In this document: positions 1 to 58,461 of the stretch, piece after piece
Position numbering within the stretch: the first letter of the stretch is position 1
How the letters are laid out: each line of letters begins with the position of its first letter
From: a virus
Reading direction: 5' to 3' (one strand)
IMG/VR virus record: IMGVR_UViG_3300042988_000374
Span: 64,001-128,000 of that record
DNA: 64,000 nucleotides
Notes under the pieces: model-generated
Seen by the model: the letters and a program-made list of their open reading frames with translations, nothing else
Databases searched by the model: none
Told to the model about the DNA's origin: nothing
Position numbers and translations under genes: made by a program

Positions 1-837
1 ATTAGCGAAGTAATTATCAATGAAACAATTCAACTGGACGAAGGTGTGGTTGATACCATCAAGCAAAAGTTAAACGGCGTATTGGCTAAAATTCGCCAAG
101 CGTATCCTAATTTTGATGCCGTACTAAATCAGGTCAAAACATATCAACAAGAAATACGGGCTATCGCCAGTCAATTACAATCTGGAACTAAGCCATCTAA
201 GGATGAGTTAATTGCCATGGTTAAACCACTTGCCACTAGAGTGGCCGGCGAGATGAAAACTATGAATGAGGGTAAGTATGACCCTGAAAATCAACCAACT
301 ACTCTCTATACCGCTGGTGATTATTCTAAAGCAAGAAAATCTACAAAAACGGTAACCACTAATAATAAAAAATCAGAAATTAGTAAAGAGACAAAGGAAT
401 TTCTAATATTAATTCTAATGCCATTATACGGTCTACTCTCGTTGATTCTATCATTACGTAATGAAAGTTTTGTACAATTTTTTGTAATGGTATTTGGTGC
501 ATTGTTGGTACTTATATTTTTGGCGGTTGGTGAATCGACAGAACGAAATAAATGGATTCAAGTCAAGAACTTCATTACTGATATTGCAAAAACTCCCGAT
601 GTGAAAAACGCATACACATTTCATAAATTAAGTCAATACCCGTACCATAAGCTATCATACAAAGATAACACACGTCTAGAATATTTACAGAGAATGGGGT
701 TTAAACGAGGTTCATACGAGAATGAATTAGAAAAAATAATGAATGCTATTGAGTCTAGATTTGGTGTATCGAAAGAAGCATTTAAACAAAGCAATTATTA
801 TAAATTCATGATAGACGCCATTGAAAAACAATTATGA
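1..837 (+). CDS. Membrane protein, 5' end cut by window edge
   Basis: The reading frame is open from base 1. The first visible residues (ISEVIINE) match the MKISEVxNE start seen on many proteins here, so the true start is probably just outside the window and a GTG at 46 is not the real one. Two adjacent hydrophobic stretches near residues 138-180 (FLILILMPLYGLLSLIL and a second after FVQFF) look like a membrane hairpin. The N-terminal part is helical and charged. The 3' end overlaps the next gene by an ATGA junction. No family was recognised. A virion-delivered membrane protein is only an inference from the N-terminus and neighbours. Confidence 0.7.
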   Translation: MSEVIINETIQLDEGVVDTIKQKLNGVLAKIRQAYPNFDAVLNQVKTYQQEIRAIASQLQSGTKPSKDELIAMVKPLATRVAGEMKTMNEGKYDPENQPTTLYTAGDYSKARKSTKTVTTNNKKSEISKETKEFLILILMPLYGLLSLILSLRNESFVQFFVMVFGALLVLIFLAVGESTERNKWIQVKNFITDIAKTPDVKNAYTFHKLSQYPYHKLSYKDNTRLEYLQRMGFKRGSYENELEKIMNAIESRFGVSKEAFKQSNYYKFMIDAIEKQL

Positions 838-2306
838 GAGCACAAGAATTTCAACCCCCAACAATCAAAGTCGGCGATGAAGTCATGCTCGGTAAGTTCA
901 AAAATCGCCGGGCAGAAGTCAAAGGCTTTGCTAAAGACAAGAATAATCAACCCGTATTGCAGACCACCAAGGGTGACACCCAACTATTCAAACCTCGTAT
1001 CAGTAAATTGAAGACTGCTACGACCGAGAGTAGACAAGAGGAACTGTCTCGTCTTGTCAAGATGATGACCACTGGGAAAATTCCATATGACCGTGGCATG
1101 CCATTGTTCCAGACTTATACTCAATCTCAACAACACTTACTGGAGTCTCTAGACCAATCAATTGTTGACTTTGTTCAGAATCTTCAGACTCATAGTCCCA
1201 CAGTTAATGACTCGTATTATGCTATTCCCGTGTGGGTAGTTGGTAATCAGGTGTTTGTTCTAGATTGTGAAGGTAATAATCCACCTACGGCACGTGCGAC
1301 CCCAATCATCGTTATAGCTAATAGCAGTGACCGTCTAAAAATCAAAACACCATCAGGTATAGAAACCACATACCCTTGCAATGACCTCAGTGATATGGGT
1401 TATAACACTGTGATTCTTTGTAAGACAGTCGCCGAATATCAAGCTATGGCCACAATGTTCCTGATGAAATTTGATGTCCATCTTCCAGAGATTGCAGAAC
1501 AAGAACTTGATGAAGGCTGGAAAGACTGGGTAGCTGGCGGAGCAATGGCGCTAGGAGCTCTTGGAGCGCACGGAGACGCAAATGCTGGGTCTAAGTATGT
1601 ACAGACGAAAACAAGCGCTGGTGCGCAGGCACCACAAGGAGTGGGCAGTGCTATCAAAGTAGACAAGAGTTACGCTGAACCAACAACTCAAAAAAGTTCA
1701 GCTAATAGTTCTAAATCACTTGCACAACCTGGCAAATTAGCGCAAAATATCAACAGTACATTTAAGAAGATGACGCCCGAGCAAAGTCGTGGTGGTTATA
1801 CACCGCAGCAGCTTAAAGATTATATTCAAGCAGCAGCTACTAGATACTTACCAGCGGATCAGGTGGCGCGATTCATGGGTGAAGTTGCACACGAGACAGC
1901 TAACTTTACTAGTATGGTTGAGCAGAACCCAGAGAAGAATTTGAAGCATTACGCTAAACGCGGTAACCCACTTGGTAATGCGGATATGAACGATGCGCAA
2001 AAGTACATTGGTCGTGGTTATCTTCAAATTACTGGCAAGTGGAACTATCAACATTTTGGTGATAAGATTCGCGTAGGTCTTGGTGATGAGTTAGTCAAAA
2101 ATCCGGATATGGCACTGCGCCCGGACGTTGCTGCTGCACTTGCAGTAGTATACTGGCGTGAGCGTGTGGCACCAAAAATGGACGCTGGTGCATCTAGCAA
2201 GTCAATTGCTACTGCTATCAATGGTAAGAAACCAAAAGGTCTAAAGAGTAGAGAAGCATATACACGTCAAGCGGCCGCTGACTTGAGAAAGAATAAACGA
2301 TCATGA
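834..2306 (+). CDS. GH19-family muramidase/chitinase-like endolysin with N-terminal extension
   Basis: The C-terminal ~180 residues carry GH19 hallmarks: the catalytic-Glu motif GEVAHETANF near residue 352 and YIGRGYLQITGKWNY near residue 390, followed by a helical end. This fold cleaves peptidoglycan or chitin. The first ~60 residues (MRAQEFQ, then GDEVMLGKFKNRRAEVKG) look like a KOW-type barrel. The middle has an ELDEGWKDW stretch followed by a Gly/Ala-rich hydrophobic segment; ELDE fits a T4-type prohead-protease site (L-x-E). It sits in an ATGA-overlapped operon with the amidoligases. A virion-associated muramidase is as likely as a soluble lysis enzyme. Family assignment is solid; the role is inferred. 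Confidence 0.85.
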   Translation: MRAQEFQPPTIKVGDEVMLGKFKNRRAEVKGFAKDKNNQPVLQTTKGDTQLFKPRISKLKTATTESRQEELSRLVKMMTTGKIPYDRGMPLFQTYTQSQQHLLESLDQSIVDFVQNLQTHSPTVNDSYYAIPVWVVGNQVFVLDCEGNNPPTARATPIIVIANSSDRLKIKTPSGIETTYPCNDLSDMGYNTVILCKTVAEYQAMATMFLMKFDVHLPEIAEQELDEGWKDWVAGGAMALGALGAHGDANAGSKYVQTKTSAGAQAPQGVGSAIKVDKSYAEPTTQKSSANSSKSLAQPGKLAQNINSTFKKMTPEQSRGGYTPQQLKDYIQAAATRYLPADQVARFMGEVAHETANFTSMVEQNPEKNLKHYAKRGNPLGNADMNDAQKYIGRGYLQITGKWNYQHFGDKIRVGLGDELVKNPDMALRPDVAAALAVVYWRERVAPKMDAGASSKSIATAINGKKPKGLKSREAYTRQAAADLRKNKRS

Positions 2307-4240
2307 GAGCAAAACAGTTTACCCGACCGTCAGAAATAGTTGATGAAGCCAAGATGAATCCTGGTGAGTTTGAGAAGGCGATTCAGTCTGGTCACGAGGC
2401 TGGTGTGCTAGTTGGTTATGAATTTGAGGTTTGTATACCATATGGTACATTTGGTGATGGTGAAGAGGGCGAAGGTGCTATTAATCGGGACTGGATGGCA
2501 GAGTTCTTTGTGAATCACAACTACTTTACTGAAATTACACTTGGTCATATTTCACCAGCAGAGCTAGATTCAGTATTCACATTCAAAGACGAAGCCAACC
2601 CACGATTCAAGACGTTTACCGATGCGACTGATGCCGTCTTACGTGAACGAATTGAAGAAGTTAAGCAAATGTTTTCCGCGTTAGCCGATGACGTGCGCGC
2701 CGAATTAGTAACTGATGCGAAGAACTATTTGAATAAGATTGACCGCTCAAATGAAGTCCGTTATACCACCAACGATGATCTCCATGAAGAATATATGTTT
2801 GCTCGTACACTTACACGCTTTGCGCAGCATCGTAATCGTGAGTTACGTGCTCCTGATATGGGCATTGAACTAGACGATGTGTTCAGAGCTATCTTTGGAA
2901 TGAATAGCGACACTATTGACTCTGACATCAATCACTTTTTTGATTATGACCCAGCTAAAGTGTTTGAAGAACTCCAGTTAGACGACTGGGCAGACAGCGA
3001 CTATGATGACAACAACTCACACTACAGAGCAGGTGCACAATTCTTAGCTGATGTATTACAACACAATTTTGGCACTGATGTCCACATCTTTGATAGCTAT
3101 CATGAGTTTAACAAGAATGCAACTGACTGGTACATCGAGCCTGATGGTAGCTTACGTTCAAATGATGATAGTGATGTAGCACTTGAGATTGTGTCGCCGC
3201 CTTTAGCTGCCAAGGACGCCATCGCAGCTATTACTAAGTTTTATAGTATAGCTCGTCGTTACAGTCTTTACACTAATGATTCAACCGGTCTCCATATTAA
3301 CGTTAGTATACCACGAACACTTGATGTGCTTAAACTAGCCTTATTCTTGGGTGACGCGCACGTGCTACAAATATTCAAACGCGAGAACAATGATTACGCA
3401 GTGTCAATCATGAATCAGTTACAAAGGCGTTTGGAACGTGGTGGCGGTGGTGTTATCAAAGCAGGAACTAAGAATGACGATGGTTCTGTAGAGCAGTCAT
3501 CAACTATTGATTTAAACATGTTGAAAAAGGTAGCAGAAGACATCTCTGGCGGACACACGGTGAGTATCAGTAACAATGGCAACTACATCTCTTTTAGACA
3601 TGCTGGTGATGACTATCTACAAAACAATAAAGACGTGATGGACGTTATCGGTCGCTTTGTTCGCTCTATGATTATCGCTAGTGATCCAGAAGCATATAAA
3701 CAAGACTACTTGAAGAAGTTGTATCAACTAACCGCAGCTTCTGGTGGACACACAAAGCAACTAATAGCATCAGGTGATATCGCACTACAATCACTACAAG
3801 ACATTCGCACAAATGGTGTGCCAACAATCACAGCGTATGTTTACTGTCCATCTGGGCGCGTAGATATTGAACGTTTGAGCAAAAGAATCGCGCAGAATTA
3901 TGCTGGTGAATTCAGCATATCAACAGTAGCAGCATCATCTAAAGCACAATCAGTTTTAGGTTCACGCTCCAAGTCAGTTGGTATCTCGCGAGTGATATCA
4001 GACGCAGCTTCAGATATGTTTTTTGAAGTAGTAATCTATCCAAACGTGTTTAATTTACCTGTGTTCCAGCAGCCACAACCAGATACGATTCAACACGTAG
4101 TTGTAGCTACTGTAGACGACTACGGTTACTATACTGTAGTAAACACACGCGCGGCAATCGATACAAATAAGAGTACACGTGGACTGGTATCAAAATTAAT
4201 ATCTACGTACAAATCTAGCAAAGGTAATAAACCACAATGA
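2303..4240 (+). CDS. Amidoligase-like protein, paralog A (GS-like COOH-NH2 ligase fold)
   Basis: 645 aa. Hallmarks of the amidoligase_2 family (glutamine-synthetase-like carboxylate-amine ligases) appear in order: GYEFEV near residue 38, DWYIEPDGSL near 275, LEIVSPPL soon after, and TGLHINVS near 327. LKLALFLGD and YISFRHAG follow. The family ligates amines to carboxylates using ATP; the substrate here is unknown. The N-terminus MRAKQFTRPSEIVDEAKM is shared with the next protein and resembles a capsid-targeting and processing peptide. It overlaps both neighbours by ATGA and belongs to a run of four paralogs with a gamma-glutamylcyclotransferase between them. The C-terminal ~180 residues are variable. 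Confidence 0.75.
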   Translation: MRAKQFTRPSEIVDEAKMNPGEFEKAIQSGHEAGVLVGYEFEVCIPYGTFGDGEEGEGAINRDWMAEFFVNHNYFTEITLGHISPAELDSVFTFKDEANPRFKTFTDATDAVLRERIEEVKQMFSALADDVRAELVTDAKNYLNKIDRSNEVRYTTNDDLHEEYMFARTLTRFAQHRNRELRAPDMGIELDDVFRAIFGMNSDTIDSDINHFFDYDPAKVFEELQLDDWADSDYDDNNSHYRAGAQFLADVLQHNFGTDVHIFDSYHEFNKNATDWYIEPDGSLRSNDDSDVALEIVSPPLAAKDAIAAITKFYSIARRYSLYTNDSTGLHINVSIPRTLDVLKLALFLGDAHVLQIFKRENNDYAVSIMNQLQRRLERGGGGVIKAGTKNDDGSVEQSSTIDLNMLKKVAEDISGGHTVSISNNGNYISFRHAGDDYLQNNKDVMDVIGRFVRSMIIASDPEAYKQDYLKKLYQLTAASGGHTKQLIASGDIALQSLQDIRTNGVPTITAYVYCPSGRVDIERLSKRIAQNYAGEFSISTVAASSKAQSVLGSRSKSVGISRVISDAASDMFFEVVIYPNVFNLPVFQQPQPDTIQHVVVATVDDYGYYTVVNTRAAIDTNKSTRGLVSKLISTYKSSKGNKPQ

Positions 4241-6237
4241 GAGCAAAACAATTTACAAGACCAGTCAAAGAAGAAGTGATTGACGAAGTTCGCATGAGCC
4301 CTAGTGCTTTTGCAAGTGCTGCTAAAGAGGGCAGTGAACTCGGTGTACTAGTTGGTTATGAATTTGAGGTTTGTGTACCATCTGATACAGTGCACGACAA
4401 CTTTAGCTCACCTGAACGCGCAGCACCAGAAGTTAGTGCCGAACGCATTGCTGAAACTATGTATGAAGAATCAACATGGGATGCCCATCCTCCTTGGGAA
4501 TTCACACCACTTCGTTTTGATCGTTACTTCAAGTTTAAAGAAGGTAAGTCTAAGTATCCAAACATGGTAGCAGTATATGATGACTGGCGCGAATCAGCAC
4601 TACAAAAAGCTCGTCATCTAATCGCTGAATTACCAGAAGACCTTCGTAATGAAATGAACGTCGAAGCAGAAAAGCTAGTCGATAGTGAACATTATGAGAG
4701 TATGCGTCAGGCGATTGATGACGATGAGTTGTTCTTGGCATTCTGTTTTGGTAAATCTCTGTATCTCAAAGGCAGTAATCGTGAACTAGAGCGCAAGGGT
4801 ATTGATATCTATACTGTTGCAAGGTCTACATACGATGACTTATTTGAAATGGCATTTAGTGAAGACCCAGGTGACGTTGTTCGACAACTCTATGTTTATT
4901 TGGACTTTGATCCAGAAACAGTCTATGACGCATTTGACTTGTCACGCTATGAGCCCGATGACGAAGAAGACGAGTATGACTTTAGTGGTTACAACTCCGG
5001 GTACAAACGCGCTGCTTTTGTTATGAAGGAACCAATTGCTGATGCATTCGGCGCTGATGTAAATATCTTCTCTAACTATCATCAATCAACTAAGAACATG
5101 CATGACTGGTATATCGAACCAGATGGCTCACTTGAACCTAATGATGACGATGAAGCGCTAGAGATAGTATCTCCTCCAATGCCAGCACAGGCCGCAGTTA
5201 AAGCTATCTCTACGTTTTATAGTATCGCTGAGCGATATCAATTATATACCAACAGAAGCACCGGTCTCCATATTAACGTTAGTATACCGAAAACACTTGA
5301 TGTACTTAAATTAGCAGTGTTCTTGGGTGATCAATATGTGTTAAAGTATTTTGGTCGTCAAGACAATAGTTATGCACGAAGCATGATGGCTGCTATGAAG
5401 AGTACGATTAGTGATCGTAGAAAAGTATCTGGCGCGTCACAACCGGCTACTGCTGCTGGTACTTCAGATGGTGAAGGCGGTACTCTAGCTACTACTCAAA
5501 TCGACTATGGCTTGCTGGCTTCAATGGCAAAGAACATCTCTAATCAACACACTATCAGTATCTCTGGTGAATCTGGTAAGTACATCTCATTTAGACACGC
5601 TGGTGGTAACTATCTCAAGGATAAACAAGGCGTAGTAAACGTAGTTGGTAGATTCATTCGCGCTATGATTATCGCTAGTGATCCAAACGCTTATCGTAAC
5701 GAGTATCTGAAGAAAGTATACCAGCTACTTGGCAATAGTATTAATCCATCTCGTAACAATCGCGCAGATGCGTTGAATTACCTACGTGAAAAAGGTGCAC
5801 CAGTTGTGAAGATTGATCTTGTAACTAAGGGCGAAGCTCCTACACCGGAGATGATTATGACTATCGCACGTAACACTGGTCTGTCAGATGGTTCCATTGC
5901 GCACGAAATTGCACCGAACCCAGGTGGCGCAGAGGCAGCTGCTGCTGCAATGATTCGCGTAGTACGTGGTGCCAATGCTCGTGCATGGGTAGACAATTCT
6001 GAAGATGCACACTGGTTCACGGTGGCTCTATATCCAACTGAACAGAATATTGATCGCTTTATTCGTTATCAACCAACTGGTGGTATTCAACGTACGGTAG
6101 CTGGCGGCAGCACTAGTAGTTACTATCTACCGGAGAAGATTCACATCAACTATCTAGACAACAAGTATACAAGAATGCTTCAAGGTCAGTTGATGAGAGC
6201 ACAACGCGCGGCGCGTACAACTGGTGGCACACAATGA
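4237..6237 (+). CDS. Amidoligase-like protein, paralog B
   Basis: 666 aa, the closest sibling of the preceding protein. Both begin MRAKQFTRP and share GYEFEV, DWYIEPDGSL, LEIVSPPM, TGLHINVSIPKTLDVLKLA and YISFRHAGGNYL. An acidic insertion (DDEEDEYDFS) precedes the catalytic half, and a Thr/Ser/Gly-rich linker near residue 400 differs from paralog A. Same predicted chemistry: ATP-dependent amide or isopeptide bond formation. VIDEVRM near residue 16 contains an I-x-E tripeptide that fits T4-type prohead protease specificity. It overlaps the cyclotransferase gene by ATGA, so the two are probably translationally coupled. Confidence 0.75.
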   Translation: MRAKQFTRPVKEEVIDEVRMSPSAFASAAKEGSELGVLVGYEFEVCVPSDTVHDNFSSPERAAPEVSAERIAETMYEESTWDAHPPWEFTPLRFDRYFKFKEGKSKYPNMVAVYDDWRESALQKARHLIAELPEDLRNEMNVEAEKLVDSEHYESMRQAIDDDELFLAFCFGKSLYLKGSNRELERKGIDIYTVARSTYDDLFEMAFSEDPGDVVRQLYVYLDFDPETVYDAFDLSRYEPDDEEDEYDFSGYNSGYKRAAFVMKEPIADAFGADVNIFSNYHQSTKNMHDWYIEPDGSLEPNDDDEALEIVSPPMPAQAAVKAISTFYSIAERYQLYTNRSTGLHINVSIPKTLDVLKLAVFLGDQYVLKYFGRQDNSYARSMMAAMKSTISDRRKVSGASQPATAAGTSDGEGGTLATTQIDYGLLASMAKNISNQHTISISGESGKYISFRHAGGNYLKDKQGVVNVVGRFIRAMIIASDPNAYRNEYLKKVYQLLGNSINPSRNNRADALNYLREKGAPVVKIDLVTKGEAPTPEMIMTIARNTGLSDGSIAHEIAPNPGGAEAAAAAMIRVVRGANARAWVDNSEDAHWFTVALYPTEQNIDRFIRYQPTGGIQRTVAGGSTSSYYLPEKIHINYLDNKYTRMLQGQLMRAQRAARTTGGTQ

Positions 6238-6758
6238 AGATAAGCGAAGTACTAAACGAAGAAGGCAGGCGCCGTAACTTGTCAATCTATTACTTTGCGT
6301 ACGGTATGCTCACAGATCCGGAGTACATGGGCAAAGTTGATGCAAGAATGGTAGGTCGTGCTACACTCGATGGCTACACGTTAGAGCTATTCTTACACGC
6401 TAACGTACACAAGGGCAGTGGCTCGGTCACTGGCACACTGTGGCAAATCGACAGCGCGATGTTAGCTGACTTAGATCGCACAGAAGGTTACCCAGATTAT
6501 TATACACGCAAAATCGTACCAGTTTACTGTGATGCCACCGACCGTGAGTACCGCGCAGTAATCTATGTAATGACACCAGATAGTCGAGAAGATTCAGCTG
6601 GCCGAGTCCCATCACCACGCTATATTCAAATGATTGCTAACGGCTATCAACACGCTGGAATCTCGTTAAATCAACTGGTAAAAGCTGTGGAATCTAACAA
6701 AAAGAACGCAACTCACACACAATCATCTCATGACGACCCAGAAAACGAATGGTTATGA
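6234..6758 (+). CDS. Gamma-glutamylcyclotransferase (GGCT/AIG2-like)
   Basis: 174 aa. YYFAYGML near residue 20 is the substrate-loop motif of the GGCT/BtrG/AIG2 fold, and DRTEGYPDYY near residue 82 contains the expected catalytic glutamate. These enzymes release 5-oxoproline from gamma-glutamyl amides or peptides. Placement inside an amidoligase array fits the known pairing of amidoligases, which make gamma-glutamyl-type bonds, with cyclotransferases, which remove them. The first ten residues, MKISEVLNEE, are a capsid-targeting-like tag rather than part of the fold. It overlaps the genes on both sides by ATGA. All key residues look intact, so activity is expected. Confidence 0.8.
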   Translation: MKISEVLNEEGRRRNLSIYYFAYGMLTDPEYMGKVDARMVGRATLDGYTLELFLHANVHKGSGSVTGTLWQIDSAMLADLDRTEGYPDYYTRKIVPVYCDATDREYRAVIYVMTPDSREDSAGRVPSPRYIQMIANGYQHAGISLNQLVKAVESNKKNATHTQSSHDDPENEWL

Positions 6759-9421
6759 AGGCTACCGAGATTAAATCTTATGAACTTAGATTCAGTCAGA
6801 CTCCTAGAACCATTCAGACGATAGCTGAACAACTCACCCAGTACTTCAGAGCTACCGGAATCCGTGGTTGGCCCACGTCATCGTCTATATTGAGTACTTA
6901 CTGTGAACGTGTTGCTACTGGTACGCTCCTAGAGAGCGAGACGATGAATGCGCTAGAGCGATTCCAGCGTAATATAGCACAGCTAGACCAGCGTAGTACT
7001 CTGAGAATAACAGTTGGTTCCAAATTATCCGTACTTCAATTTTATCCCCATACCGCACAAAACTTAATCGAAGTCGTTGGTACCATCCCTACAAAGACGA
7101 TTAAAGAGATTCACGCATATATGTATGGTGACACCATAGATAGCATCGAATTCACTGATGGTAGCACGTATCCAGACGCTCAATTCTTAGATAGAGGGCA
7201 AGGTGGTGGTCCACTTGATGGTATTACTACATTATTCTTCGGAGATGCGGCTAGTGCTGATAATGCGCTAACACTTGCATCTATGTATTGCGAGAATCCA
7301 TGGTCCATATCGTCACACAACGTAGAAGTTATCGGTGAATCAACCACGCATAAATACAAGATGAAATTCGAAGATTTTGCCCCAAAACAAACACAGCAAT
7401 TAGATGAAGTCCGTATGGGCGCATCTGACCTAGACAAATTCGCAGCGGAAACAAACGGCGTAATGGCCGGTTTCGAAGCGGAATTATGCTTTCCGGGTCT
7501 ATCAGGTACGTCAACTGAAACAGATTATGACAACCCTGAAGAAGACATGGACCAAGATACCAGACCAGATAGTATTGAAGAGATTTGTGACTTCTTCTAT
7601 GATGGCGACTACAACGGCCGTCGTGAGATTCAGTCACTACGTGAACATCTAAACGAAGTGTACAGTGAATGGCGCTATGAGAGATTATCTGGTGTATGGG
7701 AAGAAGTTAAAGAACAAAAGGTTCGCGAATATATCGAAGAGAATGATTACTCATTCGAAGACGAAGTCCGTGAGTACTTAGAAGATACCCTAGAATTAGA
7801 CAGAGAGCAAGCACAATCAATCATCGATGCCGGTGAAGACTCCGAGATACCAGAACAAGCTGCGCTATTCAAAGAAGCGGCTGACCATGCCAATAACGTG
7901 CTTAATGAATTGACCCAAGAAGCGCTAGATGATCAAAACTACAGTTATGACCGCGCCCGTGAAGAATGGGAAGATGAGTACGCTGATGACGAAGAAGCGG
8001 ATGAAGAATCATGGTTACGTGATCTTGGTGTGCGTTGGATGAGTGAAGTACCATCTGAGTTCAACAATCGTAACGTTAGTATATCATGGCCACACTGGAC
8101 ATATCCAGAATCTGAAAGTGAAGGCGGCTTCAATGAAGATGCTGCTCGTGACTTAGCTAGTGAATTAGCAGACGCACTAGGCGTTAATGTTCGTGCTGGT
8201 AGTGGTTATCATTCAATCAGTCGTCGACCTGGTCTTTGGATCATCGAAGCTGACAGTAGTTTAGAAGCTGATGATAGTGACGACATGCCAGCAGAAATTG
8301 TATCACCGCCTATGCCATTAGCAGAGTGTTTGACACAAATGCAAAAGTTCTTTGAATGGGCAGCATCTCAAGGCGCTTATTCAAATTCAAGTACTGGTCT
8401 ACACGTTGGTGTATCGCTACCTCACGTCGGTGGCAATGTTGACTATTTGAAGTTAGCACTGTTTTTAGGTGATCAACACGTATTACAAGAGTTTGGTCGC
8501 GAATCAAATTACTATGCTCGTAGTGCACTTGAAAAAGTTCAATCTCAAGTACAAAGCATGACTGAAGGTTCTCGCATCGCTGACACACTCAAGGTGCTTC
8601 AACATGGTTTAACAGAATTAGCACAGAAGACATTAAAGACAAATGCAAACGGTTATGGTAAATATACCTCCATCAATCCGAAGGGCGACTATATCGAATT
8701 TAGAAGTATGGGCAATGACTATATGGAAAAGACTGATAAAGTTCTTGAGGTCGTTAAGCGCTATGCTTATGCAATGTATATCGCTGGTCGTCCTGACCTA
8801 CACAAACAAGAGTACTCTAAGAAGCTATACAAGTTGTTGAGTTCAACTGGTGTCAAGATGCCAACTGCTATTGAATTGTTCTCTAACTTCAGTAGTGGTC
8901 AGTTAGACAAAGAATCATTGATTCGTCAAGTTCGCGCAATTCAAAGCAAGCGCCCTGGATTCGACGCAGCTGCACAACAAAAGAGTGCTGGTCTAACTGG
9001 TCCAGAACTAAGTGGTGATAGCTGGTTCGTTCGACCATACAACAACGCTGGTAGTGAAGTTCAACTTCGCGCTGATAGTGCTATTGAAGCTCTTGCTAAA
9101 GCTAAGCAAATGCGCCCAGATATCTTTGGTAACCTGCGAGACAATGAGATTGAAATTCGCGGTAGTAACGGTGACTACACACGTGCGTACACATTGACTC
9201 TTGACAATGGTAGTAGTAACAGCGGTGCTGGTAATGCTGGTAATGCTGGTCGTGAATTCATTGGTTGGAAGATTGTAGACGCAGTGCGCACTATTCACGA
9301 ATTCAGTGGCATTGGTAACAATCAAGCAGACGCTAATGCATTTGCAAGACGCTGGATCGCACAGAACGGTAACAACTTCGCTGTTGTAGGCGAATTGTCG
9401 GTAGTACCTAACTTTAGATAA
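6755..9421 (+). CDS. Two-module protein: N-terminal phage module fused to amidoligase-like paralog C
   Basis: 888 aa from the ATG that overlaps the upstream stop (ATGA). Residues ~1-200 form a separate module. Its FTDGSTYPDAQF region and following segment match the middle of the 244-aa protein at 12651-13385. Near residue 203, MKFEDFAPKQTQQLDEVRM starts, almost the same as the N-terminus of paralog D, followed by GFEAELC, LWIIEADSSLEA, AEIVSPPM and TGLHVGVSLP. So an amidoligase with its own tag appears fused behind another gene. An internal start at 7361 is possible, but no good ribosome site precedes it. The middle is extremely acidic. GS-like catalytic motifs are retained in modified form (DSSL for DGSL). 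Confidence 0.7.
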   Translation: MKATEIKSYELRFSQTPRTIQTIAEQLTQYFRATGIRGWPTSSSILSTYCERVATGTLLESETMNALERFQRNIAQLDQRSTLRITVGSKLSVLQFYPHTAQNLIEVVGTIPTKTIKEIHAYMYGDTIDSIEFTDGSTYPDAQFLDRGQGGGPLDGITTLFFGDAASADNALTLASMYCENPWSISSHNVEVIGESTTHKYKMKFEDFAPKQTQQLDEVRMGASDLDKFAAETNGVMAGFEAELCFPGLSGTSTETDYDNPEEDMDQDTRPDSIEEICDFFYDGDYNGRREIQSLREHLNEVYSEWRYERLSGVWEEVKEQKVREYIEENDYSFEDEVREYLEDTLELDREQAQSIIDAGEDSEIPEQAALFKEAADHANNVLNELTQEALDDQNYSYDRAREEWEDEYADDEEADEESWLRDLGVRWMSEVPSEFNNRNVSISWPHWTYPESESEGGFNEDAARDLASELADALGVNVRAGSGYHSISRRPGLWIIEADSSLEADDSDDMPAEIVSPPMPLAECLTQMQKFFEWAASQGAYSNSSTGLHVGVSLPHVGGNVDYLKLALFLGDQHVLQEFGRESNYYARSALEKVQSQVQSMTEGSRIADTLKVLQHGLTELAQKTLKTNANGYGKYTSINPKGDYIEFRSMGNDYMEKTDKVLEVVKRYAYAMYIAGRPDLHKQEYSKKLYKLLSSTGVKMPTAIELFSNFSSGQLDKESLIRQVRAIQSKRPGFDAAAQQKSAGLTGPELSGDSWFVRPYNNAGSEVQLRADSAIEALAKAKQMRPDIFGNLRDNEIEIRGSNGDYTRAYTLTLDNGSSNSGAGNAGNAGREFIGWKIVDAVRTIHEFSGIGNNQADANAFARRWIAQNGNNFAVVGELSVVPNFR

Positions 9422-9426
9422 TCAAC

Positions 9427-11643
9427 ATGAAATTTACTGAATTTGAACCAAAAAAAGTAGAACAGTTAGATGAAGTCCGTATGGGCCCATCAGACTTAGA
9501 TAAGTTTGTTAATAGCGAAGACGCTACTGGCATTCAGGCAGGCTTTGAAGCGGAATTATGCTTCTCAAATCGTGCTGGTGACAATGACGATGGTGAAGTA
9601 GAAGAAGATTACAGCGAAGATGAGCGCGTATCTGATATCCGAGATATTTGCCGATTCTTCTCCAATAACGACTACAACAGCCGTCGTGATGTTGAAAATC
9701 TACGTGAAGAAATGTCAGAGACCTACTACGAATGGCGTGGCGAAAAGATGAGCGATGCTTGGATGGAAGTCGAAGAGTCTGAGGTAGAGTCTTATATCGA
9801 AAACAATGACTACACATTTGAAGATGAAGTCGAAGAATACCTGAGAGACGAGTTAGATTTAAGCGCAGAAAAAATTAAAGAAGTACTAGCAGTTGGTGAC
9901 ACCGTTCGACGTGCTCATAGTATTGCTGCTCGTACTGAATTAGAAAATAATGACCCACGAGTGACAGTTTACTTAGAAGCAGCTGATCATGCCTATGATG
10001 TATTAGCTGACCTTGTCAAAGATGCTATCAATAATCACGACCATAGCTATAGATCAGCTTATGAAGACTGGGAATCAGAACACGAGGACGATAGCGACTG
10101 GGATGAAGATCACTGGTTAGACTCTATCGGTGTTCACTATATGAGTGATGTGACATCACACTTTGGACACGTTACTTGGCCATACTACACATCTAGTAGC
10201 AGCGACGAGGGCGGCTTCAATGAGCACAGCGCAAATATGCTATCTGATAGTATGGCCTCCAAGTTAGGTGTACGTTCACGTGCTAGTTCTGGTTATCATT
10301 CGGCTACCAGATCACCTGGTCTTTGGATCATTGAACCAGATAGTAGTTTAGAAGCTAGTGATCCATATGATATGCCAGCAGAAATTATCTCTCCTCCAAT
10401 GCCGCTACAAGAATGCTTAGAAAAAATGAAGAGATTCTTTGAATGGGCCAAGAGTGAAAAAGCATATTCGAATGAGAGTACCGGTCTGCACGTAGGTGTA
10501 TCGCTACCACGTGTCGGTGGTAATGTTGACTATTTGAAGTTAGCACTGTTCTTAGGTGATCAACACGTGCTAGAAACATTCGGTCGCGAGTGTAACACTT
10601 ATACTCGTTCAGCGTATGAAAAGATTGCTGACCAAGTTAAAACTAATGGTGCAGATAATCGCGTGACTGACACACTTAAAGTGCTTCAACATGGTCTCAC
10701 TGAACTAGCTCAAAAGACACTCAAAACTAATGCTAATGGTTATGGTAAATATACCTCGATTAACCCCAAGGGCGAGTATATTGAATTTAGAAGCATGGGC
10801 AACAATTACATGGAGATGACAGATCAAGTAATTGAAATTGTCAAGCGTTATGCTTATGCCATGCACATTGCCAGTCGTCCAGAATTGCACAAGCAAGAGT
10901 ACTCTAAAAAGCTATACAAGTTGTTAAGTTCAGTTGACAAGAGCGCACCAGTAGATACTATCAAACTATTCTCTGCATTTAGCTCAGGCAGCTTAAATAA
11001 GACCACGCTTGTTAGTATGCTGCGTACCATTCATGCTTCACGCAAGCCAGCCCCTCCTAGTGGCCCTGGCACGTATGAAATGTATCGTATCAGTGATGGA
11101 CGGACAATGTCGGCTGGCGGCAAGGAAGTTCAGTTTAACGCAAACAGTGAAGAAGAAGCTCAGAGTATGATTGCTCATTATGCTCAAGAATACCATTTAG
11201 GTGCACCACAATTATTTGCTGTGCGTTCTGTAGTTAAGCCATCTGGTAAAGCATATCAGATATATCGGAATGACACTGGTAATACATTGACTAGCTTTTT
11301 TGCTGGCAGTGACAGAGAGGCAATTGCTATCATGAATAATCGCGTGGCTAGAATGGCACCAGAAACGCGAGCGCTGTTCTCTATTCGCGTAGAGGGCAGC
11401 AATACTGCACTAGCACACGGCGGTGGAGGTGAAGGTGCTGGTGTACAGGACAGTGATGGTGTTATCTATCGTGTTTATGATACTCGTGATGACTCCAGAA
11501 CTACAATCGGTAGATTCCGCGCTACTCCAGCTAATGCTCAGCGTAACTTCACTGCCTATACACAGGGCGTGACACCGCAATACAGACAGCATTTAGAGTA
11601 TGAAGTTGAAACTCAGAGAGTCGATCCAAATACAGTTGACTAA
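9427..11643 (+). CDS. Amidoligase-like protein, paralog D
   Basis: 738 aa. It begins MKFTEFEPKKVEQLDEVRM, with LDE as a candidate head-protease site. The amidoligase signature follows: GFEAELCF, LWIIEPDSSLEA, AEIISPPM, TGLHVGVSLP, VDYLKLALFLGD, and YTSINPKGEYIEFRSMG. It is closest to paralog C; the two share long identical stretches such as KVLQHGLTELAQKTLKTNA. The C-terminal ~200 residues contain two or three repeats of a YxIYR/YRVYD-type module absent from A and B. Start at 9427 is 5 nt after the previous stop. It is the last gene of the array; the next gene has its own promoter inside the end of this one. Confidence 0.72.
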   Translation: MKFTEFEPKKVEQLDEVRMGPSDLDKFVNSEDATGIQAGFEAELCFSNRAGDNDDGEVEEDYSEDERVSDIRDICRFFSNNDYNSRRDVENLREEMSETYYEWRGEKMSDAWMEVEESEVESYIENNDYTFEDEVEEYLRDELDLSAEKIKEVLAVGDTVRRAHSIAARTELENNDPRVTVYLEAADHAYDVLADLVKDAINNHDHSYRSAYEDWESEHEDDSDWDEDHWLDSIGVHYMSDVTSHFGHVTWPYYTSSSSDEGGFNEHSANMLSDSMASKLGVRSRASSGYHSATRSPGLWIIEPDSSLEASDPYDMPAEIISPPMPLQECLEKMKRFFEWAKSEKAYSNESTGLHVGVSLPRVGGNVDYLKLALFLGDQHVLETFGRECNTYTRSAYEKIADQVKTNGADNRVTDTLKVLQHGLTELAQKTLKTNANGYGKYTSINPKGEYIEFRSMGNNYMEMTDQVIEIVKRYAYAMHIASRPELHKQEYSKKLYKLLSSVDKSAPVDTIKLFSAFSSGSLNKTTLVSMLRTIHASRKPAPPSGPGTYEMYRISDGRTMSAGGKEVQFNANSEEEAQSMIAHYAQEYHLGAPQLFAVRSVVKPSGKAYQIYRNDTGNTLTSFFAGSDREAIAIMNNRVARMAPETRALFSIRVEGSNTALAHGGGGEGAGVQDSDGVIYRVYDTRDDSRTTIGRFRATPANAQRNFTAYTQGVTPQYRQHLEYEVETQRVDPNTVD

Positions 11644-12221: not shown

Positions 12222-12239
12222 ATGAAAGCAATCAGCTAA
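12222..12239 (+). other. Five-codon minigene overlapping the IF-1 start
   Basis: ATG at 12222 encodes MKAIS and then TAA, whose last A begins the IF-1 ATG (TAATG). The stop/start overlap could couple IF-1 translation to a tiny leader peptide. MKAIS also resembles the first residues of the capsid-targeting-like tag, so it may be the remnant of a lost gene. There is no direct proof of translation. Confidence 0.35.
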
Positions 12240-12457
12240 TGGCTAAAGAAGATATCCTGACTATTGATGGTCAAATTATCGAGGTGCTACCTAACACCAT
12301 GTTCAGAGTAAAGCTACCAGACTTTGATGCGCCATTATTGGCCACGATAAGTGGACGGATGCGCAAAAATAACATCAAAGTATTACTTGGTGATACGGTT
12401 GAGGTGGAATTGTCACCATATGACCTATCTCGTGGTAGAATCTCCAGACGCAGATAA
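12239..12457 (+). CDS. infA: Translation initiation factor IF-1
   Basis: 72 aa, the same length as E. coli IF-1. It begins MAKED and keeps [26 protein letters not shown] and [16 protein letters not shown], the OB-fold core and the basic residues that contact the 30S A site. IF-1 occludes the A site and helps IF-2/IF-3 set initiation. It lies between virion-type genes, with a TAATG junction to a minigene upstream and a late promoter just downstream. The sequence is full length with no missing motif, so it is probably functional. With leaderless genes apparent elsewhere in the window, an effect on start selection in infected cells is an attractive but untested idea. Confidence 0.92.
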
Positions 12458-12489: not shown

Positions 12490-12654
12490 ATGAAGATCAG
12501 TGAAGTATTAAACGCTCGGGTAGAAGCCTGGGGCTACGTGTATGATAGACGCGACACACGTGTGATGTGGCGCAGGGAATTCCCATCTGAAGAGGCGGCT
12601 CATGCATGGGCAGACTCTAAGAACGCTACTATCATGGGAATTAAAGCACTATGA
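12490..12654 (+). CDS. Small protein with capsid-targeting-like N-terminus
   Basis: 54 aa: MKISEVLNARVEAWGYVYD, then an aromatic and charged body (FPSEEAAHAWADSKN). The start matches MKISEVLNE of the cyclotransferase. It has a late-type box upstream and an ATGA overlap with the next gene. No family was recognised. Confidence 0.65.
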   Translation: MKISEVLNARVEAWGYVYDRRDTRVMWRREFPSEEAAHAWADSKNATIMGIKAL

Positions 12655-13385
12655 AGATTAATGAAGTGCTCGGTGGTCTCCGCAAGTATGAGTTTAATTT
12701 AGCTCTATTTGAGAGTGAGCTAGGACCAATCAATCTCAACAATATTAGTATTACTAAAAATCAACACGTCATTCATTATCTGATGCGTAATTATCCTGGA
12801 TCAGATCCGTTTGCCATATTCAACAATGCAATCGAAAGAAAAATCCATCAGATTGACGGCAGTGCCACAATTATGGAATCAGCGACATTGACTGACGCGC
12901 TTAATGATTACTTTGACAAGTTCAATCAATTTAATACCGGTATAAAGGTTAAACCGGGCGATAAACTAGTAGTGCTCGAATTAGACGCATTTATATTGCT
13001 AGGTAAATCCAACGTGACTTTAGAAGGCTCAATGGTACCACGCACGGTATACTCAGTTAGTGCGCACAATGTTCAATTTACAGATGGTTCCTCGTACCCA
13101 ACTCGTACTGCAAAAATGCCCATGCGCTGGCAGCAAGTTATATTCTTCAAGGACACTGAGGCAGCGCGGCAGTGCGTCACTCTATTTAGATTACTGGAGC
13201 AGCAATCTGGTGTTGTCAGGTTGTCAGTGGGAGTAGACGACACTCTAGAAGAGCACATTGTCAAAGTCAAAGGCGGATACGAACTCCGCTCTAAAAAGGG
13301 CAATAAAAATCTAGGTAAATATCCCACAAGAGCTGGTGCTGAAAAGCGAGAGCGACAAGTTCAATACTTTAAACATGCCAAATAA
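12651..13385 (+). CDS. Probable virion protein with C-terminal YPTRAGAEKRERQVQYFKH motif
   Basis: 244 aa starting MKINEVLGGL, a capsid-targeting-like tag. The middle (VSAHNVQFTDGSSYP) is homologous to the N-terminal module of the 888-aa protein at 6755-9421. The last ~40 residues form a short module (GGYELRSKKGNKNLGKYPT, then RERQVQYFKH) that recurs at the C-termini of many phage proteins and seems to be a modular tail. It overlaps the gene before it by ATGA and ends at a strong terminator. Function unknown; packaging in the head is inferred. Confidence 0.65.
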   Translation: MKINEVLGGLRKYEFNLALFESELGPINLNNISITKNQHVIHYLMRNYPGSDPFAIFNNAIERKIHQIDGSATIMESATLTDALNDYFDKFNQFNTGIKVKPGDKLVVLELDAFILLGKSNVTLEGSMVPRTVYSVSAHNVQFTDGSSYPTRTAKMPMRWQQVIFFKDTEAARQCVTLFRLLEQQSGVVRLSVGVDDTLEEHIVKVKGGYELRSKKGNKNLGKYPTRAGAEKRERQVQYFKHAK

Positions 13386-29020: not shown

Positions 29021-30133
29021 TTATTCAAAACTGAACAAGTCGTCGAATGTCGAATTGACATCTGTATTTTCACGGAGATCCCAATTCAGTACTGATAGCA
29101 TATTCTCAACTTTTTCGTCGAGTAGCACACGCTCCATCTCAAGTTCATCAAATGGTAATTCAATGAACCATTGTGGTAAGCGCAATTGATCTACTGGATA
29201 AGCAATTGAGGTAATACCAAGTGGATTGTCTCGTAATTTGCAAACAACAATCTTCATGCCATCTACGATAGATTGACTGTAGTTGTCACCATTCATCTTC
29301 TTTAGGTAGTTCCAGTTAATGGAGGCACGCACATGTCCTGGCATATTTACCTTGCCGTTGCCTTTGCCTGAATTTGCCTTCTCCAACTGGGTGGCATAAT
29401 CATTCAATCGCTTAACGCCTTTTGGTGAGCCCTTGGTCCATGCATCCATCTCGCGTAACTTTTTCTTAAATTCACGAATCTTACCAATGATGACTTCTTT
29501 ATCATCACCGTTCAGCACGTTATCAAGAATTTCTGCCAAGAATACTTGAACATACTTTGGCGTATCACTACGCTTCAAATCAAGACCCATAGCTTTGATA
29601 TCACCACGTTTGCCGTCTTTATCTTTGCGTTTGCCTTCTTTGTCGTAGATATTTACCGCGTACTTTTTCTTTTTAATGAACAGTCCACGGTCAGCTACAA
29701 TCTCTCGACCAGCTTTAATAATCTCACCATTTTTACGAGGACAATGGAATGAACGTTCCATCATTTCTGGGAATGATTGGTTAGTTTGCTCAGCCAGCTC
29801 ATCGTAGATTTGAACCGCAGTCTCTTTGTTCCAGTTCTCCATAAGGGCAGGGTTCTGCTTCAACATAGGTATCGCTGTGAAGTAACAGGAATTATGAACA
29901 AGGATATCGTTGCCAAAGAACCAGGGTTCGTTTTCATTACGCATACCGATGTCATATACGTATTGTTCTCCAGCATCTTCTAGCTTTCTAATACTCTTCA
30001 CTGGCGCTCTGCTCAGTGCGATTACGTGCCCTGACACAATCTCTTTAGCAGATGCATCATAGGTATCCACCTCCTCGTTTAGCAATTCAGTTAGTGTTTG
30101 TTTTAATTCTGCTGGTGTTATTTTAGTAGCCAT
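29021..30133 (-). CDS. 43: Split intein C-half + C-terminal part of DNA polymerase
   Basis: 370 aa. Residues 1-81 are the intein C-half: VYDIGMRNENEPWFFGND (block F) and DILVHN (block G), ending in the catalytic His-Asn. The polymerase resumes at Ser82 (SCYFTAIPML), the residue after DTD of motif C. KKKYAV (the conserved KKxY) and the thumb follow. The last residues DDLFSFE resemble the T4 gp43 clamp-binding tail. The intein half is longer than the usual ~40 residues: an extra helical segment (KQTLTELLNEEVD) may aid docking to the N-half. It overlaps the endonuclease gene by 16 nt. It needs trans-splicing to make active polymerase. Confidence 0.9.
   Translation of the reverse strand: MATKITPAELKQTLTELLNEEVDTYDASAKEIVSGHVIALSRAPVKSIRKLEDAGEQYVYDIGMRNENEPWFFGNDILVHNSCYFTAIPMLKQNPALMENWNKETAVQIYDELAEQTNQSFPEMMERSFHCPRKNGEIIKAGREIVADRGLFIKKKKYAVNIYDKEGKRKDKDGKRGDIKAMGLDLKRSDTPKYVQVFLAEILDNVLNGDDKEVIIGKIREFKKKLREMDAWTKGSPKGVKRLNDYATQLEKANSGKGNGKVNMPGHVRASINWNYLKKMNGDNYSQSIVDGMKIVVCKLRDNPLGITSIAYPVDQLRLPQWFIELPFDELEMERVLLDEKVENMLSVLNWDLRENTDVNSTFDDLFSFE
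29891..30133 (-). other. Split intein, C-terminal half
   Basis: 81 codons from the ATG to the terminal Asn, with blocks F and G intact. The +1 extein residue is Ser. Confidence 0.88.
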
Positions 30134-42408: not shown

Positions 42409-42417
42409 GTATTTATC
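42409..42417 (-). promoter_or_regulatory. Late promoter box
   Basis: Minus strand GATAAATAC 24 nt before the ATG at 42385; leadered, with AAGG as ribosome site. It overlaps the stop codon of the upstream gene. Confidence 0.65.
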
Positions 42418-43981
42418 ACTTCCTGAATTTACCGTCAGTCCTGCTCACTTGGGGGCGACCATCACGAGCGATATTGCCAAGGCCCAGCGCAATTGCCGAC
42501 TTTTTCATGGTATCTGGACGCACATCTACCGATAGGGCACGTTCCCATCGTGGATCAGACTTCTCCGACTCACTTGGGATGTAGCCAGAGCATTCGGCCA
42601 GTTGACTTTCATTGAACCGGCGACTAAAGCGCGTAGCAAAACTTTCACCGGGGAAGTCGATTGTCCACCCATCATAAGTGTGATTACCCTTAGCATCATC
42701 AACACACTTCAACATGATATAAGTTAAACCCTCAGAGGCTACTCCGGGCTCCGTTACAAGTTTAAGAATAACTTTTTGGGACTCATACTGGGTGTTGTAA
42801 ATTTCACCAGCAGTTGACATAAACATGGCATGGCCGTCCTTTGTATGTCGAACTTCAGCTATTTCAATTGATTCAATCAGATTGATACCAGCAAGATGAA
42901 CCGCCCTCTGCTGTACCTCTACTATGTCAACAGTCATACCAGCTTTGATCTCTGCTGCAGGTAGCCCTTCACCAAATGCAGCCTCCAGTAATTCATTAAG
43001 CGTGTTTACCTCAGCAGACTCACAAAACTCGAACTTCCTTTTCCAGATGTTTTCATACAATTCTGCGTACAATGGTCCGGACGACATCTCAAGATCCCAG
43101 CAGTGACGCAGAATCTTCTGCCCGTAATCGTGCTGTATTTGTTGGTTATTGTGGTAATCGTCGTAACTAGGCACATCACTGAAGTCAAATTCAGTTTTTT
43201 TTAGATAGCGCTCAAAACTTTCAAAGATGTCACTCACATCCGGTGACACCAGGGGTGCAGTTCCACTCTCTTCATCAATACTGAGTGATTTACCACGTAA
43301 ACGGTCTCGCTTGCGGTATAACTGGTCAACTAGTCCACTTGAACGCAAGGATTTATAAGAAATATTCTCGCTGCTGAATTCACCACCTTTTTCAAGACCA
43401 GCAGCACGATATCGCTTAACCGTATCAATCACCGAGTTAATAGCCTCGAGATTATTGCTTCGTAGAGCCAATCTAGCCACCGCCGCCAGCTTTTCAAACT
43501 TTTGAGCGACATCTGGAGTATCAATTTTAGCAGTCCGCTTTACTGGGAATTTAATCCACTTATCGTCTTTGACACTGTACTCACCAAGGCTGCGAACCAC
43601 ATCGGAGGCATCCTGAATATACAATTCTACGTCTAGACCGCGTACGGTAATCTTGTGCTGCATATTGTAAATTGTCTTTTTGCTGGTAAATAACTCTCTA
43701 TAAACATCACTGTCAGAGATAGCGCTCATGTCCACTAATAAGTGTAGGTCAATGTCACTGTGTGACGTGTAAGTATAGGCAGCATTCGAACCATAAAGTC
43801 TGACATCAACTACTTTAAGGTGACTTAATCCCATGAATTCTTCAAAGTCGGCCGCAATCTCCATCAACTGTGAACGAACGTCCGCCTGTAGTTTGGAGTC
43901 TTTAAACAAGGCCCCATTCAGTTCATCATGGAACTGGACAGCGCTGTCTAGATTGTAGGATTCAATGTCTGATATCTTCAT
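42416..43981 (-). CDS. Pol-beta-type nucleotidyltransferase with virion tag
   Basis: 521 aa. RLYGSNAAYTYTSHSDIDLH near residue 63 is the GS...DxD active-site motif of the pol-beta-like nucleotidyltransferases (as in aminoglycoside nucleotidyltransferases and MNT). A third Asp follows in GLDVELYI. The C-terminal third has SGYIPSESEKSDPRWERALS and DTMKKSAIALGLG, modular ends found on phage virion proteins. The N-terminus MKISDIES is a CTS-like tag. It could be packaged and modify a host protein or RNA on entry; the target is unknown. It has a late box 3 nt before ATG. Confidence 0.72.
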   Translation of the reverse strand: MKISDIESYNLDSAVQFHDELNGALFKDSKLQADVRSQLMEIAADFEEFMGLSHLKVVDVRLYGSNAAYTYTSHSDIDLHLLVDMSAISDSDVYRELFTSKKTIYNMQHKITVRGLDVELYIQDASDVVRSLGEYSVKDDKWIKFPVKRTAKIDTPDVAQKFEKLAAVARLALRSNNLEAINSVIDTVKRYRAAGLEKGGEFSSENISYKSLRSSGLVDQLYRKRDRLRGKSLSIDEESGTAPLVSPDVSDIFESFERYLKKTEFDFSDVPSYDDYHNNQQIQHDYGQKILRHCWDLEMSSGPLYAELYENIWKRKFEFCESAEVNTLNELLEAAFGEGLPAAEIKAGMTVDIVEVQQRAVHLAGINLIESIEIAEVRHTKDGHAMFMSTAGEIYNTQYESQKVILKLVTEPGVASEGLTYIMLKCVDDAKGNHTYDGWTIDFPGESFATRFSRRFNESQLAECSGYIPSESEKSDPRWERALSVDVRPDTMKKSAIALGLGNIARDGRPQVSRTDGKFRK

Positions 43982-48012: not shown

Positions 48013-48717
48013 TGCTCGTTTTTGCAATCGATAATGCTTCCTGATATAGGAATCACCAAGATACAAGATGAGCAGCGTAAACATCTCTTCACTATCAAAG
48101 TCGATAAAGTGGTTATTGTGAGACCTGACATAATACCAACCGGTACTGTTGCTGTTTGTCCACAATTTTAAGGCAGCGCAAGGATAGTAATCAGGGTACT
48201 GGGCAAAGAATGACTTTAGGCTAGCTTTAAACTCAGGAGGAGACGACTTATCTTTGAGATACACTCTGTACTGGTGCGCCGGAGTATTTTTGAACTCCAT
48301 GACATCTGGTGTATTTGGTGCAAAGGCTTCCGCTGCTTCAAAGTCCGTGAACTCCATCTTAGCGGCGCGACCTATAAACTTCTCATCATTGGTATAAACT
48401 CTGACTTTTGAGCCAGCATACCAACCATTGTAGGAGATCGAGTGTTCCTTCTTTAGATACTTGTTCTTTAGGTCAATGAGTTTTTTAACTTCACTGTAGT
48501 CTATAGCCAGTAGCGATTCGATATAAGGAGTCGAGCCCTTGTTGTAGAAGTACTGCTGATTAAGCGCCTCTTGAACTCGCAGAACGTATTCGTCTATGGT
48601 GGCTGACTCCCTAATTAGATGCGCGCCTGACATTTCAAACGACACACGGTACTTGTACTTGTTATAGTACAAGGACTGTCGGTGCTCAGATTTTAATTCA
48701 TAAACTGATGATGCCAT
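48010..48717 (-). CDS. Hypothetical protein downstream of ClpA
   Basis: 235 aa, aromatic-rich and basic (HRQSLYYNKYKYRVSFEMSG, TNSNSTGWYYVRSHNNHFI). It overlaps the clpA stop by 20 nt. Its stop codon lies in the terminal bases of the IS605 remnant, so the original C-terminus may have been longer. Function unknown. Confidence 0.55.
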   Translation of the reverse strand: MASSVYELKSEHRQSLYYNKYKYRVSFEMSGAHLIRESATIDEYVLRVQEALNQQYFYNKGSTPYIESLLAIDYSEVKKLIDLKNKYLKKEHSISYNGWYAGSKVRVYTNDEKFIGRAAKMEFTDFEAAEAFAPNTPDVMEFKNTPAHQYRVYLKDKSSPPEFKASLKSFFAQYPDYYPCAALKLWTNSNSTGWYYVRSHNNHFIDFDSEEMFTLLILYLGDSYIRKHYRLQKRA

Positions 48718-58355: not shown

Positions 58356-58461
58356 GGTGTACTGCCTTATATTGTGAGTGTGGATATTGTTCTTGGAGCC
58401 AGGCTAATAGTTCTGGCTCATATGGTAATTTAACTGAGTGATATTTGTTGGTGATGTACAT
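58342..58461 (-). CDS. Very small protein between groES and gp44 operon genes
   Basis: 39 aa: MYITNKYHSVKLPYEPELLA, then WLQEQYPHSQYKA. Its ATG overlaps the GroES-like stop (TAATG) and its end overlaps the next gene by 14 nt, so translation is likely. No family recognised. Confidence 0.55.
   Translation of the reverse strand: MYITNKYHSVKLPYEPELLAWLQEQYPHSQYKAVHHEMA

What the first reader, a model, noticed from the sequence alone, without database searches (positions are those of the whole stretch)
2303..11643. Tandem array of four amidoligase-like paralogs with a gamma-glutamylcyclotransferase
All four proteins keep G-x-E-x-E, (I/E)xDGSL or DSSL, EIVSPP and TGLHxxVS motifs of the glutamine-synthetase-like amidoligases, and a GGCT with an intact catalytic Glu lies between B and C. 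Known: amidoligases and GGCT/AIG2 proteins are linked in neighbourhoods that make and remove gamma-glutamyl or peptide tags. Four divergent copies in one phage operon, each with a virion-type tag, look like an undescribed modification system acting on a host or virion target.
Basis: partly seen in the sequence, partly recalled or inferred. Interest (0 to 1): 0.9.

Follow-up and report, generated by a model that had tools for sequence, protein, structure and literature searches.

The report
Head-packaged phage amidoligase–cyclotransferase cassette
A large T4-related phage carries four enzymes predicted to build amide bonds and one predicted to break gamma-glutamyl bonds, nearly all beginning with a signal like the one phage T4 uses to pack proteins into its head and inject them, so it probably delivers a protein- or metabolite-modifying kit into the bacterium together with its DNA.

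Summary
Window 2303-11643 encodes four glutamine-synthetase-like amidoligases (A-D) in a tightly packed operon, with a gamma-glutamylcyclotransferase (GGCT) between B and C. Pfam Amidoligase_2 passes cut-off for A, C and D; B belongs by alignment. Catalytic motifs are intact in all four and near-invariant in 44 relatives; Foldseek places A with phage amidoligases and, weakly, glutamine synthetases.

(1) The 'virion tag' is a capsid-targeting sequence of the phage T4 internal-protein type, followed by an LxE prohead-protease site. This genome has 18 such starts among 195 ORFs (8-fold over background); the site is present in all 49 amidoligase domains checked, including those fused behind other domains. 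(2) The GGCT link is real: one GGCT class (YGML) is tagged and sits beside or is fused to amidoligases (14/29 loci; four fusions); a second class (YGMN) never is (0/37).

Best reading: an Alt-like, head-packaged, injected effector set that forms amides and trims gamma-glutamyl groups. Packaging is strongly inferred; substrate and target are unknown. The enzymes are known kinds; amidoligases as capsid-targeted effectors appear undescribed in the papers I could read. New variant of a known kind.

The parts
2303..4240 (+). Amidoligase A (clade I), 645 aa
   Evidence: PF12224 27.9 bits, cut-off 22; active-site columns intact; AlphaFold pLDDT 86; Foldseek to phage amidoligases E 4e-19
2303..2347 (+). 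Predicted capsid-targeting tag of A, cut predicted after E15 (EIVDE|AKM)
   Evidence: disordered in the model
4237..6237 (+). Amidoligase B (clade I), 666 aa
   Evidence: PHROG 2443 5e-4; 38% identical to A; sister of A, support 99/96
4237..4287 (+). Predicted capsid-targeting tag of B, cut predicted after E17 (EVIDE|VRM)
6234..6758 (+). Tagged gamma-glutamylcyclotransferase, YGML class, 174 aa
   Evidence: PF06094 1.7e-16; YGML loop and catalytic Glu conserved; class linked to amidoligases
6749..9421 (+). Amidoligase C (clade II), 890 aa, with extra N-terminal domain and a C-terminal repeat module
   Evidence: PF12224 33.6 bits
6749..7360 (+). N-terminal domain of C (residues 1-204), related to the tagged ORF at 12651-13385
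   Evidence: BLASTP E 7e-8 for the single comparison
7361..7408 (+). Internal tag-like stretch of C with predicted cut after E220 (TQQLDE|VRM)
9427..11643 (+). Amidoligase D (clade II), 738 aa
   Evidence: PF12224 26.9 bits; sister of C, 99/96; AlphaFold pLDDT 76
9427..9474 (+). Predicted capsid-targeting tag of D, cut predicted after E16 (EQLDE|VRM)
834..2306 (+). Tagged GH19/endolysin-type protein directly upstream in the same operon
   Evidence: PF00182 9.6e-7, PHROG 181 endolysin 6e-29; MRAQEF start; relatives tagged 15/18
46..837 (+). Tagged protein of unknown function; the full ORF starts just outside the window at genome 63995 (MKISEVIINETIQLDE|G)
12651..13385 (+). Tagged protein related to the N-terminal domain of C
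42416..43981 (-). Tag-like nucleotidyltransferase-domain protein whose relatives are fused to amidoligases (L019, L025, L032, L034, L038, L039)
   Evidence: Homology; PF01909 in relatives, sub-threshold here

Best explanation
The operon encodes a set of enzymes that the phage packs into its head and injects with its DNA. Each precursor is drawn into the prohead core by a 9-20 residue capsid-targeting sequence, which the prohead protease removes after an LxE site; copy C and fused relatives are cut at the same site between domains. After ejection the amidoligases use ATP and metal to join a carboxylate to an amine, most likely on host proteins or peptides. The co-packaged GGCT, which is tied to clade I amidoligases (A and B), removes gamma-glutamyl groups as 5-oxoproline and so trims or reverses that linkage or a competing host one. 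Shown here: fold family, intact active sites, tag and site, GGCT link. Inferred: packaging and ejection. Guessed from family chemistry: substrate and target.
For: Pfam, alignment and fold evidence for the amidoligases; near-invariant active-site columns in 44 relatives; tag pattern in 18/195 ORFs against 1.1% background, p 1.5e-11; LxE site enriched only at residues 8-25 of tagged proteins, p 1e-12; same layout in T4 IPI-III, whose tag is known to direct packaging, gp21 processing and delivery (PMC9026906); the site kept in all 49 amidoligase domains, 15 of them not at the annotated N-terminus; related records have gp21-type proteases and capsid proteins with an LxE propeptide site; Atu_ph07 homologue lies two genes from portal, inside a cluster rich in proteins found in virions by mass spectrometry; YGML GGCT class tagged 25/29 and near amidoligase 14/29 against 0/37 and 0/37 for the other class; four GGCT-amidoligase fusions.
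Against: No proteomics was available; whether Atu_ph07 gp196 was detected could not be checked. The prohead protease and capsid protein are not on this 150 kb record. PDB fold matches are weak (best E 0.04). Only 10 of 27 records have any GGCT, and the YGML class also occurs without an amidoligase nearby and fused to GH19 endolysin. The conserved xE-x-x-M stretch could have a structural role.
Confidence: 0.58

Rival explanations
1. The enzymes are packaged but act inside the prohead or virion: they amidate, cross-link or glutamylate capsid or core proteins and peptides during head maturation, and the GGCT edits or recycles the product.
For: Same packaging evidence; the Atu_ph07 homologue is beside portal and prohead genes.
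Against: ATP would have to be available inside the prohead; the tagged company in relatives (endolysins, cell-wall hydrolase, GNAT acetyltransferases) looks like entry and host-directed enzymes; copy number and clade vary between related phages, unlike a conserved assembly step.
Confidence: 0.15
2. The amidoligase-GGCT pair acts on small molecules after injection or late in infection, for example making and cleaving gamma-glutamyl-amines such as gamma-glutamyl-polyamines, not proteins.
For: Glutamine-synthetase-like enzymes and GGACT-type cyclotransferases include small-molecule enzymes (family knowledge); GGACT Pfam match; direct fusions.
Against: Packaging a few dozen enzyme molecules per virion is a poor way to change metabolite pools; large variable extra regions and C-terminal repeat modules suggest macromolecular recognition.
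Confidence: 0.13
3. The amidoligases take part in hypermodification of phage DNA.
For: [quoted passage not shown]
Against: No amidotransferase or ATP-grasp gene was seen in the operon; the genes sit with tagged endolysin and GGCT; tags predict head packaging, too late for modification of replicating DNA.
Confidence: 0.04
4. The tag is coincidental or has another role, and the proteins are ordinary unpackaged enzymes made during infection.
For: The motif is short, and protease and capsid genes are not on this record.
Against: Eight-fold enrichment of the tag, position-specific enrichment of the protease site and conservation of the site at inter-domain junctions are hard to explain otherwise.
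Confidence: 0.08

Closest known systems
Phage T4 internal head proteins IPI-III and the injected ADP-ribosyltransferase Alt (capsid-targeting sequence, gp21 LxE processing)
   Same: Same N-terminal layout and LxE processing site; Alt is likewise a packaged protein-modifying enzyme
   Different: The cargo is an amide-forming or gamma-glutamyl-cleaving enzyme, in several paralogues; no proven packaging
Glutamine-synthetase-like amidoligases with AIG2/GGCT neighbours (PF12224; Iyer et al. 2009, not readable here)
   Same: Fold family, motifs and GGCT association
   Different: Capsid tags, protease sites at domain junctions, extra domains, two clades side by side, direct GGCT fusions
Agrobacterium phage Atu_ph07 gp196 (AUZ94978)
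   Same: Homologue at 28% identity over half of A, LTE|LKMNS site, beside portal and prohead genes
   Different: One copy, no GGCT in that genome
Polyvalent proteins (Iyer et al. 2017, PMC5512222)
   Same: Relatives combine nucleotidyltransferase, putative metallopeptidase, amidoligase, GGCT and endolysin domains in long proteins likely to be injected
   Different: That paper's text does not mention amidoligases; here most are single-enzyme proteins with a T4-type tag
LUZ24-like phage amidoligases (PMC3890496)
   Same: PF12224 enzyme in a phage
   Different: Early gene with amidotransferase and ATP-grasp neighbours, short protein, no reported capsid tag

Membership tests
Amidoligase_2 (PF12224), glutamine-synthetase-like | Profile match above the curated cut-off | tested here: met
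   A, C and D above 22 bits; B not matched by Pfam, placed by PHROG 2443 and alignment
Amidoligase_2 (PF12224), glutamine-synthetase-like | Conserved catalytic residues (GxExE, ExDxS, E..SPP, TGxH, FR) | tested here: met
   Present in all four and near-invariant in 44 relatives; clade I has S for the E before FR
Amidoligase_2 (PF12224), glutamine-synthetase-like | Glutamine-synthetase-like fold | tested here: inconclusive
   Strong match to predicted phage amidoligases; solved glutamine synthetases head the PDB list but only at E 0.04 and low TM-score
Amidoligase_2 (PF12224), glutamine-synthetase-like | ATP-dependent amide bond formation | not testable with these tools
   Needs biochemistry
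GGCT/GGACT (PF06094, AIG2-like) | Profile match, YGxx loop and catalytic Glu | tested here: met
   1.7e-16, YGML loop, E84
T4-type capsid-targeted internal head proteins | Short N-terminal targeting propeptide ending in an LxE cleavage site | tested here: met
T4-type capsid-targeted internal head proteins | Encoded with a gp21-type prohead protease of matching specificity | tested here: inconclusive
   Not on this incomplete record; present in five related records over the cut-off, with capsid proteins carrying an LxE site
T4-type capsid-targeted internal head proteins | Found cleaved inside virions and ejected into the host | not testable with these tools
   Needs virion proteomics; the Atu_ph07 supplementary table could not be opened
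Polyvalent proteins | Several disparate catalytic domains in one polypeptide | tested here: not met
   Window proteins are single-enzyme; only relatives are multi-domain

The most novel reading that the evidence does not exclude
T4-related large phages inject a previously unrecognised post-translational modification system: up to four head-packaged amidoligases conjugate a gamma-glutamyl, amino-acid or amine group to host proteins in the first minutes of infection, and a co-injected GGCT edits the conjugates.
Probability: 0.3. Interest if true: 0.88.

Novelty: new variant of a known kind. Interest (0 to 1): 0.64.

Why it matters
If right, phages deliver amide-bond-forming enzymes at the moment of entry, adding a new chemistry to the short list of head-packaged host modifiers, of which Alt is the classic. 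It gives the orphan phage Amidoligase_2/GGCT pairing a testable setting, and the tag plus LxE rule offers a simple way to list the likely injected proteome of this phage group from sequence alone.

Tried and rejected
Single-sequence searches of viral contigs with copies B and D found nothing; the four-copy alignment was needed. A scan of genome contigs found no relative, so no bacterial source was identified. A profile search of PDB sequences with the amidoligase alignment gave only chance-level matches. The 2009 amidoligase paper is not held. A lysis or entry role for the whole cassette was considered because of the neighbouring endolysin and the GGCT-GH19 fusions, but the amidoligases have no cell-wall domain. 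I considered that GGCT adjacency merely reflects that many phages carry GGCTs; the second, untagged GGCT class, never near an amidoligase, argues against that. Iterated search for the C-terminal repeat found it only in clade II/III amidoligases and gave no function.

Full report
What is there. The window is bases 64001-128000 of a 149,889-base IMG/VR record, probably a fragment: searches for prohead protease gp21 and capsid protein gp23 found neither. On the + strand a compact run of genes includes an endolysin (834-2306), amidoligase A (2303-4240), B (4237-6237), a GGCT (6234-6758), amidoligase C (6749-9421) and D (9427-11643); neighbours overlap by a few bases or are 5 bases apart. The run starts at genome 63145 with two related, tagged genes.

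Enzyme identity. A, C and D pass the Pfam cut-off for Amidoligase_2; B is recognised by PHROGs and by 38% identity to A. In 44 aligned sequences, mostly 20-40% identical to A, the residues expected of a glutamine-synthetase-like active site are invariant or nearly so. AlphaFold gives A a confident model (pLDDT 86) in which residues 5-14, within the tag, have very low confidence. Foldseek matches predicted phage amidoligases at E 4e-19; in the PDB, glutamine synthetases head the list but only weakly. None of the four copies looks dead. Clade I (A, B and most of their relatives) has YISFRH where clades II and III have YIEFR. By analogy with glutamine synthetase this would replace a metal ligand and may supply a histidine in exchange; that is inference.

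Relatives and history. A profile search found 29 viral loci, and Agrobacterium jumbo phage Atu_ph07 has one homologue. The tree shows three well-supported clades, I (17 rows), II (17) and III (7), plus a two-row branch and the long Atu_ph07 row. A+B and C+D are sister pairs (99/96 each). So the 'four copies' are two lineage-specific duplications on top of an old I/II split. Other phages keep similar mixtures, for example I with III in L015, L018, L020, L026 and L040, or I with II in L024 and L025.

The tag. The proteins begin with M[KR], a few residues, an acidic or Gln residue and a hydrophobic residue; 9-21 residues from the start comes [LVI]xE followed by a small or hydrophobic residue. In this genome 18 of 195 ORFs of at least 80 aa begin with the tag pattern, against 1.1% of internal methionines (p 1.5e-11). 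Among proteins that are not amidoligases, 48 of 101 tagged ones have the LxE site at residues 8-25 against 72 of 511 untagged ones (p 1e-12), with no excess at residues 40-57 or 70-87. T4 internal proteins IPI-III, read from the T4 record, start with the same layout. In T4 the 10-19 residue propeptide is enough to send a protein into the head, is cut off by gp21, and the cargo is delivered to the next host (PMC9026906). Major capsid proteins of five related records carry an LxE before the mature-type N-terminus, and gp21-type proteases over the cut-off are found in five records. The site lies 18-22 residues before the GxExE motif in the 49 amidoligase domains examined, 34 times at the N-terminus and 15 times after another stretch or domain (nucleotidyltransferase, GGCT or others; a few of the 15 may only reflect a start codon called too far upstream). 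In one of the 49, L019:3940, the scan picked a nearby match and the homologous site, LFE|VAM, was read by eye. Conservation at a domain junction is what a processed precursor would need, although a structural reason for the segment cannot be excluded.

Tagged company. Tagged neighbours in relatives include endolysins (15 of 18 in one cluster), a cell-wall hydrolase, a LysM/lysozyme protein and tandem GNAT acetyltransferases. This resembles the repertoire described for polyvalent, injected proteins (PMC5512222), whose text does not mention amidoligases.

The GGCT link. A reverse search gave 80 viral GGCT loci, which fall into two classes. Of 29 non-redundant YGML-class GGCTs, 25 have a tag-like start and 14 have an amidoligase within 6 kb; of 37 YGMN-class GGCTs none has either (p 2e-14 and 1e-6). 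Four proteins fuse a YGML GGCT to a clade I amidoligase, one with GGCT first (L022) and three with it last (L026, L093, L101). The pairing is not exclusive: the same GGCT class is fused to GH19 endolysin in L072 and L081. GGCT and amidoligase therefore look like modules of one packaged cocktail with a preferred partnership.

Mechanism. Well supported: enzyme families, intact active sites, tag and site, GGCT partnership. Strongly inferred: head packaging and tag removal. Inferred: ejection into the host. Guessed from family chemistry: amide formation on host proteins or peptides, with gamma-glutamyl removal by the GGCT. The rivals (action within the virion, small-molecule chemistry, DNA modification, a meaningless tag) are scored separately.

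Novelty. Phage amidoligases, amidoligase/AIG2 neighbourhoods, T4 capsid-targeting sequences and injected modifying enzymes are each known. I found no paper in the held library that describes capsid-targeted amidoligases or GGCTs; that library lacks most subscription journals, and the 2009 amidoligase paper could not be read. I therefore rate it a new variant of a known kind.

Noticed in passing
window 12239-12457: A phage-encoded translation initiation factor IF-1 (PF01176 3e-21) lies just downstream of the cassette, and also near the amidoligases in L024 and L029.
   Followed up: partly
window 48698-50959, 50963-51760, 58461-58829 (-); genome 26964-28175, 28172-28915, 29015-30901, 31375-31671: The phage encodes a ClpA/ClpB-type ATPase, DnaJ and GroES (Pfam) and ORFs that by eye look like ClpX, methionine aminopeptidase, DnaK and ClpS: a near-complete chaperone and N-degron protease-adaptor set.
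   Followed up: partly
L019:17024-17668, L040:15688-16362, L081:5986-7929: Tagged GH19-type endolysins have a twin-arginine-like stretch (IDRRGFL...) right after or near a predicted cleavage site, weakly matched by TAT_signal in L081; after injection they could be exported by the host.
   Followed up: no
L033:8377-9270, L029:11845-12723, L018:7460-8341: A tagged family next to amidoligases (starts such as MRALQFIAE|GATPVLYHKT) that by eye resembles ADP-ribosyltransferases; the one member tested has no Pfam match.
   Followed up: partly
window 29021-30133, 30118-31206, 33384-35075 (-): The DNA polymerase gene seems split: a C-terminal part (PHROG 1918), an intervening ORF and an ORF that by eye looks like a polymerase N-terminus.
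   Followed up: no
window copy C residues 834-889; L014, L015, L016, L019, L024, L030, L033: A small C-terminal repeat module (about 55 aa, one or two copies found) occurs only in clade II/III amidoligases and may be a recognition domain.
   Followed up: partly
genome 283-1302 and 4409-5887: ORFs that by eye resemble NMN adenylyltransferase and nicotinamide phosphoribosyltransferase suggest NAD salvage.
   Followed up: no
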